Assembly (NCBI GenBank): GCA_001466705.2
Contig: LATX02000046.1
Coordinates: forward strand, 1,178,001 to 1,242,000
DNA length: 64,000 nucleotides
Direction of reading: 5' to 3'
DNA from: Moniliophthora roreri
Taxonomy: Eukaryota; Basidiomycota; Agaricomycetes; Agaricales; Marasmiaceae
Shown: positions 1,034 to 35,773 of the stretch, piece after piece
Layout of the letters: every line of letters starts with the position of its first letter
Numbering within the stretch: position 1 is the first letter of the stretch
The notes under the pieces: generated by a model
What the model was told of the DNA's origin: nothing
The model's database searches: none
Seen by the model: the letters and a program-made list of their open reading frames with translations, nothing else
Position numbers and translations under genes: made by a program

Positions 1034-1646
1034 ATGCCAGCCTTACCAAATTCAAACGCCAATTGCAACTCCTTCTCAACTGGCGTGACAGAAGTCGCTT
1101 TCACCGATACAAGCTCATCTCTCGCTACACCTCTCCTTCTTCTCACACTTTTCAACATTCTTTATCTCCTTGGTCCACCGATCTTCAGCTGGCGCTTTCC
1201 CTGTCAATCGACTGACGAACTTGACACTTTTGTGTCCAAGCTCGAGGCTCTCATCCAGAACAACAGCTCTATGGTCAGAGACGTTCTAGGAGACAGCGAA
1301 GAGGAATTGACAGCTTCACTCGAGGTGTATGTTCCTACTTTTCTTTTTTCATTCGTACATTCCCGAACTGATAATCAGACTTTGGCTGTACGATATATCG
1401 ATAGACTCAGCAATAAAGCATACGAACTTGGGATTCTTGCATCTCGCGAACCGAGTCGAGCCAACCCTCTTGTTTGGGCAAAGTTTCAGTGGTCACTACT
1501 TAAAGATGTAGATGCGTGTTACCACTCTTTGAAATGGCTCAAGGGACAAGTCGAGGTATGTGTTTTTTTCTTGTCGCTTGACCCATTTGCATCTACTTAT
1601 GCTTACACTTACCCAGGCAAAGATACACGACGGACGGACAGACTAA
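1034..1646 (+). CDS. Array gene A1: small single-span membrane protein, A subfamily
   Basis: Exons 1034-1326, 1405-1555 and 1617-1646 give 157 aa. Residues 1-30 are a Ser/Thr/Asn-rich head. A hydrophobic span covers about 31-50 and runs into the family motif GPPIFSWRFPCQST. A helical segment rich in Glu/Asp/Leu follows to the end of exon 1. Exon 2 (151 nt) encodes the second conserved block, with SRANPLVWAKFQW then LLKDVDACY. The last exon encodes AKIHDGRTD. The Arg and Cys just after the span suggest a cytosolic C-terminus (inference). A1 is the leftmost array member, and its B partner would lie off the window. The start was chosen because all A genes begin MP followed by a small-residue-rich head. 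Function unknown. Confidence 0.82.
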
Positions 1647-2577
1647 GATCTTCTCATCACATTATACAACCCTGTCGCGTCCTTTTTCTCCTTACCTATG
1701 TTCACATCCAGTTTATTCCCCCTTTCACTCTTTTTGTGGTCCAGGCACCTGCATTCAACAGCATTCTACCGTAATCGATATGTCACATCACCTCGCTGCT
1801 CCTCAAATACCTTTCTTATGCTCGCTATCGATTATCATGTTCTTTCATATGCTGGATTTATGACTCGCAATGAAACAGAATGAAGATCTTGGTTGTAAAG
1901 GTTTTCTTTTTTTGCTGGAAATGAACGCGCGCCGAAGCCAAGTTGAACGGGATAAATCGAGGCAACAGCATTCAACGCGCGAAGCGCCGTTCAACAGCAT
2001 CAAAGTACTAGTGTCATCATTGAGAACCACACTCATTAATATACTGATGTATATCTCGGGTTTCGTGCTTGTATCACTTGAATGGAAAATGTGCATGTGC
2101 AATTGGGCCGACCGGTGATCTTTGGCGCGTAATCCCCATTGACGTCCATATTCTCGAGTCGAACACTGACGTCAATAAGAAAGTCTCCAAAGCGTATGGA
2201 ACCGATATTCGGGACACCAGCCGTGTGAGCTTTGACCGGGATACTGTGAAGTCCTTCCGTATAGGTTCCATTGGGTATAAATACAACGCGACATGCTGAA
2301 GCGAGCACAATATCAAAAAAGAACGGGCTCATCATAGACAGGAAAGCATTATAGTAGCATGAAGAATGAGAACAGATGACATGAGTAACAAGGGCCAGAA
2401 AGCGGGATATCAATATGGAAGCGGAGGACGTCGATGTGGGGTACTCTTCCAAAGACAAAGGTAGCCTCGCGACGAATCAATCCGACTGGGGCATGGTTGC
2501 TTGTCGCAGCACAGCGTCTAGCTGATTCTCTGAGCGGTCATTAGTCAAGCTCTTTCAACGAAAAAGGCACGTCAAGC
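1647..2577. other. Tail-to-tail spacer A1/B2
   Basis: No gene. It carries the A-type 3' element TTCAACAGCATT at 1754-1765 and a second copy near 1990. From about 1980 it is closely related to 10010-10560 (the spacer between A5 and B6), including the shared stretch around GCAATTGGGCCGACCGGTGA. This marks a segmental duplication. The open frames here are shadows created by that conserved non-coding stretch. Confidence 0.6.
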
Positions 2578-3231
2578 TCACCCAGCTTCAACCGCAGATG
2601 TACCGGCACACTGTTCGCCCTCCAAGTTTCCTTCACCTACACATTGGGGTTTGGCCTACAAAAACCGTTCAATATACGAGACACAGCAAAAGTATGAACG
2701 TGAACACGAACCTGAGCCTCGCACTCCAACTTTTTCAATGCAACATAACACACATCCACCTCCTTCAACATATCCCACTTGAACGCGATCCAGGCGAACA
2801 AGCTCGAGCGAGGTGGTTCAATACGCGCTTTGAGAGCAGTAATACGATCGTTTATTCTAAATTTTTATGCGTCAGTCAGCCAGGAGAAGGATGAAATAGA
2901 CGGTAAGGAAAACTCACTCCCACAGCCTTTCCTTCAAATTCAATCCATGTTTTCCTCCAACCTTTTGAATTGAGCGTTCTACGGACAGAGTGAGGCGACG
3001 GAGTCCTTGAGCGGATTGAACTGGGTACCGCCAGTTGTAGATGTGGGGTATGATGATGTATAAGATGGTTAGGACGAGTAGAGTGTCGATGAGAGGACGA
3101 GGAAGGCTGGAATTAGACAGGGTGCTTTCCAGGACGGCGGTAGATGGACAGGATGAGAATAAGATGTTTTCCGAGACAGAGGAGGTCGGAGCGACTTTTG
3201 CAGTCGAGATGGAGGTCTTGATAGGTGCCAT
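2578..3231 (-). CDS. Array gene B2: small single-span membrane protein, B subfamily
   Basis: Exons 3231-2918, 2856-2712 and 2655-2578 give 178 aa. The N-terminal 45 residues are Ser/Thr/Pro-rich. A span at about 47-62 ends in the B motif IPHIYNWRYPVQSA, with Val where A proteins have Cys. Exon 2 is 145 nt and encodes IEPPRSSLFAWIAFKW and KEVDVCYVALKKLE. Exon 3 encodes a Gly/Glu-rich tail ending GTSAVEAG. B6 is its closest relative, differing mainly by scattered substitutions. An upstream reading frame joins it, but a conserved 5'-UTR intron (GTGAGC near 3303 to CAG near 3243) places the true start at the MAP methionine shared by most B genes. Function unknown. Confidence 0.82.
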
Positions 3232-33596: not shown

Positions 33597-35188
33597 CGCA
33601 GAATGAGAATCGGGATCTACATGAATAAATCGGCTTCGTGAACGGCTACAACTCAAATTAAGGCTTACCAAGAGGTAAAGTGAGGTCTGTAAAGGGCAAT
33701 TTGAGGTTTTGACGAGTCTCTCTGAAGGCTATCTTGTCGGATTCGTGATTTCTGCTGGTGCTACTGCTGGCGACGTTGGAATTGGCCTGACCTGACCTGC
33801 CTCAACACCTTCATTCCGGGATGACTAATCCTTCTTCCTTCCCTTTACAGTGCCGCCACCCGTCCGAAGAGGACAGGTTCCAGCTTCCAGCTTCCAGCGC
33901 CCTCGGTGACAGGTAAGTACTGATGCTGATTTCGGTTGCGAAAGCGTCGGGACAGCGATGACATTGCTGGGGGTTCGCCTTTTCTACCATCGTCGAGAGT
34001 ACCCTCCGCCGTACTGCTGCATTTATTCTATCTGCTTCCTGATAAACCACAACACCTGGAGTAGCTTGCTAAGTGTCGAGAGCTGACGGTATTTTTTTTC
34101 AGCCAGATTAGCACTTGCGAGGAGAGGATTCGTACCTGGCTTGATGAGGATGTCGAGGGATTATATTGAGTCGATCCCTATGGGTGTAGGACATGGGAGG
34201 TTTGCGAGAAGGTAGAGAACTAATGTGCTGAGAGATCCAGTCGATATTGGACTATTCGGAATGTAGAGGTAGATAGTAGGGAGCTTGAAGTCAAGATGAC
34301 TGAAAAGGGGAAGGGGAAGACAGGCCGAATGTTAGAGCGAGTTAACAGGCGGTTGACGTTGACAGGATTTGGTTGACACTTGACAGGAAGTTCACGGAGA
34401 TCAGACAGCGGTCAGACAGTAACGTGCCCTAACTTGAGGTTAGGGTTAGATGTGTTGTCCTTCCCGCTCATGTCTGTTTGCTCTAAAAGTCTTCTGACTC
34501 GCATTCCACCTCAGTACTGCCTTTCTTCCCCTCGACAACACCATTCTCATCCCCAGAGAGCTTGTGTCCGGTACGTGCATCGAAATAACTTCTTGTCAGC
34601 CGTTTGACGTTAGTTGATGGGTGCAATCCATTCCCGCTGTCAGAGCATAAAAATGACACGAGGAATGCATCTAAATACCCTCCACTCTATTCCATAATTG
34701 ATGTCAAATCTATGCCTCTACTCTCCTCTCAACTCCCAACTCTCAACTCCCAACTCTCAACTCCCATGCTCCAAGGCCCATGCTCAAGATTCAAGATCCT
34801 GTATTGGATACCTCAAAGCTCTACCTACACTTTTTCTTAACACCACCATATCGCATCTCCACCTAAGTCGACGGACCATCATCGCTCCGCGACATCCCTA
34901 GGCTCGAGACCCAAGCACGACCCGCAATGTGCAGCACCTCTTTAGACTCTTTCCTGGCTGTGTCGTTACGCTAGTCCCTTTTTGGTCGCTTCCCAAGTCA
35001 GTCTCTTTGTTCAATGTTTGGCTCGACTTCCGTGATGGCAGCAGCAACGATTGGGACGGCGCCTAGATCAAGAGCAGGTGACATTTCGCACGCTCTATCA
35101 TACATGGAAAGCTGAAGCTGGCAAGAAAACGTGTTGCAAAAGCACAAGTTCTAGTCACAAACAACCCCGATTCTGTGTCTGAATCAAG
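33597..35188. promoter_or_regulatory. Head-to-head intergenic region B12/A13
   Basis: No credible gene. B12 side: GGATGACTAATCC (33819-33831) and CTTCCCTTTACAG (33838-33850). A13 side: CAGGTGACATTTCGCACG (35075-35092) and AAAACGTGTTGCA near 35131. A 14-bp tandem repeat TCTCAACTCCCAAC (about three copies) sits at 34727-34768. Confidence 0.55.
35075..35092 (+). promoter_or_regulatory. A-type upstream box of A13
   Basis: CAGGTGACATTTCGCACG, 114 bp before the A13 start; one mismatch from the A11 copy. Confidence 0.6.
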
Positions 35189-35773
35189 ATGCCAGTCATA
35201 TTCACCTCTACTTCCAATCCCAACCCCGGCTCCAACCCCGTCGCAGAAGCCGCTCTGACGGGCGCAAGTTCGACTTTTTCAACACCGCTCCTACTCCTCC
35301 TTACTATCTTCAACATCTTATATTTCCTCGCCCCACCTATTTTCAGCTGGCGTTTCCCCTGTCAAACTACCGATGACCTTGACGTTGTCATCGCAAACCT
35401 AGGGGACCTCATCAACTCAAACTGCTGTTTCAAGAGGGACCTCATTGAGTTAGACGATGCAGAGGCATTCAAATCTTCACTACAACAGTACGTTATTCAT
35501 TCTTTTTGGCCAACCTCTGAACGATGAATGATGTTTTGTGGCAGACTCAGCACCGAAGCGTTCAAAATCAAGCTACTACCTGAACCTCCCAGAACGAATC
35601 CATTTGTCTGGGTAATGTTTCGCTGGAAGGTGTTGAAAGATATGGATGCTTGTTATACATTGTTGAAGGTGCTGGAATGGGAGGTTAAGGTGTGTGTATC
35701 CTTGTTCGCTGCTCGTGTTGGATGCAATTGCTCATGGGTACACGAAAACGACCAGGCAAAGATTCACGCATGA
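35189..35773 (+). CDS. Array gene A13: small single-span membrane protein, A subfamily
   Basis: Exons 35189-35487, 35545-35689 and 35756-35773 give 153 aa, with exon lengths identical to A11 (299, 145 and 18 nt). It starts MPVIFTS. The span leads to APPIFSWRFPCQTT, followed by DDLDVVIANLGDLINSN with the Cys pair as in A11. Exon 2 encodes LPEPPRTNPFVWVMFRW and LKDMDACYTLL. The tail is AKIHA. It is the last array member; the next gene to the right is an unrelated F-box gene, so its convergent B neighbour is absent. Most differences from A11 lie in the head. Function unknown. Confidence 0.85.

What the first reader, a model, noticed from the sequence alone, without database searches (positions are those of the whole stretch)
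1034..35773. Thirteen-gene array of two paralogous membrane-protein subfamilies in strict strand alternation
Seven A genes (plus) and six B genes (minus) alternate without exception across 35 kb. Every A carries W-R-F-P-C and every B carries W-R-Y-P after the membrane span. Strict alternation of two subfamilies is not expected from simple tandem duplication of one gene. It implies that a two-gene unit is what duplicates, so A and B probably act together, for example as a heteromeric membrane complex. The architecture (repeated divergent pairs of diverged paralogs) resembles the HD1/HD2 mating-type arrangement of mushrooms, although the proteins are unrelated. A self/non-self or combinatorial pairing role is speculation.
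Basis: partly seen in the sequence, partly recalled or inferred. Interest (0 to 1): 0.92.

Follow-up and report, generated by a model that had tools for sequence, protein, structure and literature searches.

The report
Duplicated divergent pairs of orphan membrane genes
A cacao-pathogen fungus carries a row of small membrane-protein genes that were copied two at a time, each time as one A gene and one B gene facing away from each other, which suggests that the two proteins work as partners; what they do is unknown.

Summary
The window lies in a Moniliophthora roreri genome and contains 7 A genes (+) and 6 B genes (-) in strict alternation. Another B gene lies 0.8 kb left of the window, so the array is 14 genes: seven complete head-to-head B/A pairs. 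Four more pairs were found elsewhere in the genome; all 11 pairs found are divergent with one A and one B. A and B are paralogs sharing an intron position and a similar predicted helix layout. The closest pairs (2/4, 6/7, 1/c24) are relatives in both the A and the B part of the tree, so the two-gene unit is what duplicates; deeper branches agree less well. Both members of the closest duplicates are under purifying selection. Seven A genes share a 17-base upstream element found nowhere else in 59.4 Mb; five B genes carry a different one. Relatives were found only in Moniliophthora, with no Pfam match above cut-off and no similar solved fold. WRFP/WRYP is not a perfect class mark genome-wide (two B exceptions). 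Mating-type families match on other contigs. More distant C, D, E relatives are arranged differently. That A and B form a heteromeric complex is plausible but untested; nothing found supports a self/non-self role.

The parts
1034..1555 (+). A1 (exon 1 1034-1326, exon 2 1405-1555; short third exon not delimited)
2712..3231 (-). B2 (exon 1 3231-2918, exon 2 2856-2712)
   Evidence: core in WG66_012977
4765..5264 (+). A2 (exon 1 4765-5066, exon 2 5120-5264)
6786..7347 (-). B3 (exon 1 7347-6989, exon 2 6930-6786)
   Evidence: core in Moror_2595
8803..9300 (+). A3 (exon 1 8803-9098, exon 2 9156-9300)
   Evidence: core in Moror_2594
10688..11204 (-). B4 (exon 1 11204-10891, exon 2 10832-10688)
14501..15001 (+). 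A4 (exon 1 14501-14802, exon 2 14857-15001)
   Evidence: core in Moror_2592
25096..25627 (-). B5 (exon 1 25627-25293, exon 2 25240-25096)
   Evidence: core in Moror_2587
27382..27877 (+). A5 (exon 1 27382-27677, exon 2 27727-27877)
29272..29811 (-). B6 (exon 1 29811-29474, exon 2 29422-29272)
31227..31728 (+). A6 (exon 1 31227-31525, exon 2 31584-31728)
   Evidence: core in Moror_2584
33067..33596 (-). B7 (exon 1 33596-33271, exon 2 33217-33067)
   Evidence: core in Moror_2583
35189..35689 (+). A7 (exon 1 35189-35487, exon 2 35545-35689); an unspliced reading runs on to about 35773
   Evidence: core in WG66_012992
924..940 (+). A-class upstream element CAGGTGACAHTTCRCAC, A1
8692..8708 (+). A-class upstream element, A3
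27281..27297 (+). A-class upstream element, A5
31109..31125 (+). A-class upstream element, A6
35075..35091 (+). A-class upstream element, A7
11546..11579 (-). B-class upstream element (AARGGAAG..GATTASTMAT), B4
29992..30016 (-). B-class upstream element, B6
33821..33845 (-). B-class upstream element, B7
11921..13990 (.). Element with terminal inverted repeats inserted between B4 and A4 (interrupts pair 4, not a part of the unit)

Best explanation
The array is a tandem multiplication of a two-gene unit: two anciently diverged paralogs, A and B, head to head with 1.4-3.5 kb between their start codons (1.4-1.8 kb in 8 of 11 pairs). Each encodes a membrane protein (core 137-168 residues) with an N-terminal tail poor in positive charge, one hydrophobic helix, the W-R-F/Y-P boundary motif and three further helices, most likely in the cytosol. 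Shown: gene structure, pairing of 11 of 11 intact A and 11 of 11 B found, unit duplication, purifying selection on both members of the closest copies, class-specific upstream elements in 7 A and 5 B genes. Inferred: the unit arose from one inverted duplication, and both members have been kept in every copy because A and B function as partners, most simply as a heteromeric membrane complex whose duplicated versions have diverged.
For: 11 A/B pairs, all divergent, at five places: the array (7), C45:1117.7-1120.3k, C24:36.5-39.8k, C130:186.1-190.6k, C120:137.3-139.9k with A on - and B on +. Intron at the same place: with no filter on phase the best-scoring splice is phase 2 in 21 of 21 genes (the models had been restricted to phase 2); Bc120 has no intron there. 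B is a clade (UFBoot 100). Groups found in both parts of the tree (support A / B): 2+4 (100/99), 6+7 (99/100), 1+c24 (99/95), (2,4)+3 (93/62). Mantel r 0.81, 1 of 20000 permutations; without pairs 4 and 7 r 0.57, 43 of 20000; also without c24 r 0.40, 1052 of 20000. dN/dS between the closest copies: A2/A4 0.37, B2/B4 0.26, A6/A7 0.18, B6/B7 0.33, A1/Ac24 0.17, B1/Bc24 0.41, all six bootstrap upper limits below 1. The M. perniciosa protein MPER_11474 groups with A7 (UFBoot 97), so the 6/7 duplication appears older than the species split. AlphaFold models of A6 (pLDDT 79) and B5 (pLDDT 74): a long helix at the hydrophobic segment followed by three helices in both (not superposed). A element: 7 hits in the genome, all upstream of A genes, reversed control 0. 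B element: 8 hits, 5 upstream of B genes on the B strand, 3 in one repeated sequence, reversed control 2.
Against: Nothing tests physical interaction. Tree agreement is expected from linkage alone, and it is not complete: A5 groups with Ac120 (90), whereas Bc120 groups with Bp (77). A and B upstream elements differ, so co-regulation by one shared element is not shown; 4 of 11 A genes lack the A element and 6 of 11 B genes lack an exact B element. Bc120 lacks WRYP and the intron; B1 has GTG where the other 10 B genes have ATG and no other in-frame ATG before the hydrophobic segment, so at least one B may be decayed. One degenerate unpaired A relic exists (C130:204.3-205.0k). With C/D/E relatives included, A monophyly is weak (32).
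Confidence: 0.5

Rival explanations
1. Co-duplicated but independent: A and B are neighbours from an old inverted duplication and simply travel together when the segment is copied; each acts alone or as a homomer.
For: Tandem copying of a segment yields strict alternation and congruent trees without any interaction; A and B have separate class-specific upstream elements and a long gap between start codons; C-type relatives lie in a same-strand row with no partner seen.
Against: With A-A identity averaging 47% and B-B 45% the copies are old, yet no intact locus found has lost one partner (11 of 11), and both partners of the closest duplicates are constrained.
Confidence: 0.37
2. Self/non-self or combinatorial recognition, like the repeated HD1/HD2 pairs of mushroom A mating-type loci.
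For: Layout only: repeated divergent pairs of diverged paralogs; single-pass membrane proteins.
Against: No matches of Homeobox_KN or STE3 on this contig; constraint, not diversification, between closest copies; 6 database proteins named for strain MCA 2997 contain the same core as the window genes, although the strain of this assembly is not known to me and M. roreri is reported as clonal (PMC10468315, abstract).
Confidence: 0.06
3. Killer-antidote pair: one member toxic at the membrane, the partner protective, the unit spreading by making its loss costly.
For: Two-gene unit found only in one genus that multiplies and disperses and was not found split in intact form.
Against: No resemblance to a known toxin or antidote was found; A and B have the same predicted layout; known fungal killers that I recall are not divergent paralog pairs (recalled).
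Confidence: 0.05
4. Artefact of gene modelling (chance ORFs).
For: Short multi-exon genes without a known domain.
Against: Homology across 22 genes with a conserved intron, purifying selection, an M. perniciosa relative, database proteins holding the core of 8 of the 13 window genes.
Confidence: 0.02

Closest known systems
Moniliophthora hypothetical proteins Moror_2583/2584/2587/2592/2594/2595, WG66_012977/012992, MPER_11474
   Same: They are the window's genes or a close relative: the eight M. roreri ones contain the core of a window gene; MPER_11474 is 79% identical to A7
   Different: Annotated only as hypothetical proteins; no paper in the held library contains any of six locus tags searched, Moror_2582 to Moror_2587
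HD1/HD2 homeodomain gene pairs of agaricomycete A mating-type loci
   Same: Divergent pair of two diverged paralog classes; in some mushrooms the pair is repeated (recalled); in M. roreri one HD1/HD2 pair in opposite orientation (PMC10468315, section 21 read)
   Different: Proteins unrelated: membrane proteins, no homeobox match; homeobox matches on other contigs
H2A/H2B histone gene pairs and alternating alpha/beta tubulin arrays (recalled)
   Same: Repeated units of two paralogs whose products are obligate partners
   Different: Universal, near-identical copies; here copies found in one genus at 28-85% identity within class, and partnership untested
C, D and E subfamilies of the same superfamily on C124 and C85 of this genome
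   Same: Hydrophobic helix + WRFP, intron at the same place (best splice phase 2 in 18 of 19 modelled; D1's best is phase 0 and its second, phase 2, matches protein P0013), similar second exon
   Different: Not in A/B-like divergent pairs: 10 C-type genes and one E-type lie on one strand over 52-87 kb of C124; two D-C neighbours are convergent (their C members C2 and C3 had doubtful or no splice models)

Membership tests
A/B superfamily defined here (hydrophobic helix, W-R-F/Y-P, phase-2 intron, E-P-x-R...W-x-x-F-x-W helix) | single hydrophobic segment followed by W-R-F/Y-P | tested here: met
   21 of 22 A/B genes carry the motif; one segment above the threshold in 20 of 22, A5 and Ap below it
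A/B superfamily defined here (hydrophobic helix, W-R-F/Y-P, phase-2 intron, E-P-x-R...W-x-x-F-x-W helix) | intron in phase 2 at the same place | tested here: met
   best-scoring splice is phase 2 in 21 of 21 A/B genes without a phase filter; absent in Bc120
Repeated divergent pair with A and B in every unit | one A and one B, head to head | tested here: met
   11 of 11 pairs found; one degenerate unpaired A relic not counted
HD1/HD2 mating-type locus | homeodomain proteins | tested here: not met
   no Pfam match above cut-off in the 2 A and 2 B tested; Homeobox_KN matches on C90, C71, C1 only
HD1/HD2 mating-type locus | high allele diversity, balancing selection | not testable with these tools
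   no isolate genomes held; between copies omega 0.17-0.41
Pheromone/receptor (B) mating-type locus | STE3 receptor in the cluster | tested here: not met
   STE3 matches on C113, C153, C93, C126, C132, C66, none on C45
Any Pfam family | score above gathering cut-off | tested here: not met
   A6, A3, B5, B2 tested: none above cut-off; weak matches below it only (A3 Peroxin-3 E 0.099; B5 BRI3BP 0.065, MMS22L_N 0.075)
Heteromeric membrane complex | A-B contact | not tested
   the structure tool folds single chains only

The most novel reading that the evidence does not exclude
An undescribed, Moniliophthora-specific two-component membrane system: each A/B pair is a matched heteromeric receptor or pore, kept specific to its own partner, with the pairs in parallel giving a repertoire that is switched by class-specific transcription factors.
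Probability: 0.15. Interest if true: 0.82.

Novelty: new variant of a known kind. Interest (0 to 1): 0.55.

Why it matters
It is a clear case of a divergent paralog pair acting as the unit of gene-family growth, with 11 copies, concordant recent duplications, retained partners and class-specific upstream elements, in a family of unknown function found in one genus only. If A and B are partners, the copies offer a natural experiment on how partner specificity is kept while a two-gene unit multiplies. It also gives named targets (including Moror_2583/2584/2587/2592/2594/2595) for existing expression and isolate data.

Tried and rejected
Rejected: chance ORFs (conserved intron, selection, annotated proteins); mating-type genes on the same contig; one shared bidirectional promoter element (the best shared elements are class-specific); a third conserved gene between B and A (a B-proximal conserved stretch looked for a moment like an exon or splice site on the A strand, but by eye frames and splice consensus do not hold across pairs); a known fold (Foldseek: A6 55 matches and B5 52 matches with E up to 10, none with E up to 0.001; profile against PDB sequences one match, E 0.88). 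Papers: searches gave listings only, and one search found no paper with any of six locus tags; PMC10468315 outline, passages and section 21 read; PMC3948071 passages only. The hits were irrelevant.

Dropped rows: alignment A1 held 16 of the 22 A/B proteins; alignment A2 held 10 C/D/E, one A and one B; the A/B/C/D/E tree held 13 of the 20 C/D/E genes attempted (C3 gave no splice model, C2 was doubtful, the others were left out as near-duplicates or for brevity); structure alignments held 14 of 15 database proteins. P0010 is a database model of Bc120 that ends differently from my reading. The splice chosen for Ac24 tied with another; that of B4 is second-best in the last scoring. Selection was estimated by a simple counting method with codon bootstrap; A1/Ac24 is near saturation (dS 1.15). 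Motif shuffles were 12 per setting and shuffled two-base blocks. The C124 row was read only in pieces, so absence of partners there rests on the genome searches and on two 2.5-kb stretches.
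Full report
Where it is. The window is G000:C45:1178001-1242000 of a 59.4-Mb, 154-contig genome. B5 is 100% identical over its core to Moror_2587 of Moniliophthora roreri MCA 2997, and other proteins of the array carry M. roreri names, so the genome is taken as M. roreri; the strain is not known to me.

What is there. A six-frame scan gives seven A genes on + and six B genes on -, strictly alternating. Spliced models have exon 1 (N-terminal tail, hydrophobic helix, W-R-F/Y-P), a 49-78-base intron, exon 2 (E-P-x-R...W-x-x-F-x-W...D-x-C-Y) and a short further exon that I did not delimit. 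The models were restricted to phase-2 introns; rescored without that restriction, the best splice is phase 2 in 21 of 21 genes. The core of 8 of the 13 window genes is contained in database proteins (tested without the first five and, where needed, the last two residues). A further B gene lies just left of the window (C45:1177231-1176671, -), which turns the row into seven complete B/A head-to-head pairs.

Genome-wide test of pairing. Searching the genome with A6 and B5 gives four further A/B loci: C45:1117.7-1120.3k, C24, C130 and C120. All are divergent pairs with one A and one B; on C120 the strands are swapped (A on -, B on +), so divergence and not a fixed strand is what is kept. In total 11 of 11 pairs. 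Distances between start codons are 1802, 1533, 1455, 3296 (holding a 2.07-kb inserted element), 1754, 1415, 1592, 1601, 2312, 3505 and 1634 bases. One degenerate A relic without a B match lies at C130:204.3-205.0k. Genome searches list the best candidates only, so counts are lower bounds.

Two subfamilies, one unit. A and B are paralogs: same intron place in 21 of 22 genes (Bc120 has none), mean identity A-A 47%, B-B 45%, A-B 32%. B is a clade with 100% ultrafast bootstrap in the 22-gene tree. Groups present in both parts, with A/B support: 2+4 (100/99), 6+7 (99/100), 1+c24 (99/95), and (2,4)+3 (93/62). Deeper branches do not all agree: A5 goes with Ac120 (90), Bc120 with Bp (77). Distance matrices correlate (r 0.81; 1 of 20000 permutations). 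Without pairs 4 and 7, r is 0.57 (43 of 20000); without c24 as well, 0.40 (1052 of 20000), so the recent duplicates carry most of the signal. MPER_11474 of M. perniciosa groups with A7 (97%), so at least the 6/7 duplication appears to predate that species split.

Selection. Between the closest copies dN/dS is 0.37 (A2/A4), 0.26 (B2/B4), 0.18 (A6/A7), 0.33 (B6/B7), 0.17 (A1/Ac24), 0.41 (B1/Bc24), bootstrap 95% limits all below 1. Both partners are constrained. The comparison that holds B1, which has GTG in place of the start codon, gives the highest value.

Upstream elements. A genes of pairs 1, 3, 5, 6, 7, p and c24 share CAGGTGACAHTTCRCAC starting 101-129 bases before the start codon. Genome-wide, with one mismatch allowed, this pattern occurs 7 times, each time there, and its reversed control 0 times. 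The pattern was made from these sequences, so its presence there is by construction; the exclusivity is the result. Pairs 2, 4, c130 and c120 lack it (best matches 5-7 mismatches of 18, as in background). B genes carry a composite element, AARGGAAG followed by GATTASTMAT: 8 genome hits, of which 5 lie upstream of B genes on the B strand (pairs 4, 6, 7, c130, c120) and 3 in one repeated sequence; the reversed control gave 2 hits. Looser B matches occur in other pairs. The core TTASTMA resembles Yap-type bZIP sites (recalled, not tested). The two classes thus have separate upstream elements.

Structure. AlphaFold models from 14-row alignments give A6 pLDDT 79.1 and B5 pLDDT 74.0: disordered start, a long helix at the hydrophobic segment, three further helices in both (the models were not superposed). 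Foldseek against the PDB gives no match with E up to 0.001. Positive charges before the hydrophobic segment are 0 in 10 of 11 A genes (2 in A5) and 0-3 in B genes, and in all 22 there are more in the 25 residues after it, which suggests tail outside, helices inside (inference by the positive-inside rule).

Wider family. Contigs C124 and C85 hold more distant relatives with an intron at the same place: C types (10 genes on + between 52 and 87 kb of C124, plus others on -), D types (two D-C neighbours convergent about 1 kb apart) and one E type. In one search, 19 of 20 gave a splice model, 18 with the best splice in phase 2. A plus B separate from C, D, E with support 90, but A monophyly is weak (32) in that tree. 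Pairing in divergent A/B units is thus a property of the A/B branch, not of the whole superfamily, as far as these pieces show. Profile searches of a 5.8-billion protein set found only Moniliophthora proteins: 2, 8 and 5; that search needs shared five-residue words, and one search scored only the candidates sharing most words, so distant relatives elsewhere may be missed.

How it most likely works. Shown: unit duplication, constant pairing among the loci found, constraint, class-specific upstream elements, shared layout. Inferred: A and B are partners, most simply a heteromeric membrane complex, which would explain why no intact locus found has lost one of them (confidence about 0.5). The main rival is co-duplication of independent neighbours (0.37). 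Self/non-self recognition has no support: mating-type families match on other contigs, closest copies are constrained, and isolates could not be compared.

Verdict.

Noticed in passing
window 11921-13990: Element with 61-, 77- and 128-nt inverted-repeat arms (94-98% complementary) inside pair 4; besides its own two arms, the 128-base arm has only partial, shorter matches on C118, C141, C119, C5 and C130.
   Followed up: partly
G000:C124:11-87 kb and C85:31-42 kb: Large clusters of C- and D-type relatives of A/B, one row of C genes on the same strand, spaced about 3 kb.
   Followed up: partly
G000:C45:1177231 (just outside the window): B1 has GTG where the other B genes have ATG and no other in-frame ATG before the hydrophobic segment; possibly decayed.
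   Followed up: partly
G000:C120:139449-139943: Bc120 lacks the conserved intron and the W-R-Y-P motif (reads F-I-Y-P) yet keeps its A partner.
   Followed up: no
G000:C128:128601-129300 and 132701-133400: Still more distant candidates with R-H-R-F-P-C and R-R-R-Y-P-C, one on each strand.
   Followed up: no
window 20365-24036: Long open frames with hydrophobic segments, inside the gap between pairs 4 and 5; the 981-residue frame has no Pfam match.
   Followed up: no
window 50845-52311: RNA-dependent RNA polymerase (PF05183, E 1.4e-48) on the minus strand, possibly an RNA-silencing gene (inference).
   Followed up: no
window 45609-48274: Open frames with two GATA-type zinc-finger-like stretches (read by eye, recalled motif).
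   Followed up: no
window 37210-38823: 537-residue frame with a sub-threshold F-box-like match, near the right end of the array.
   Followed up: no
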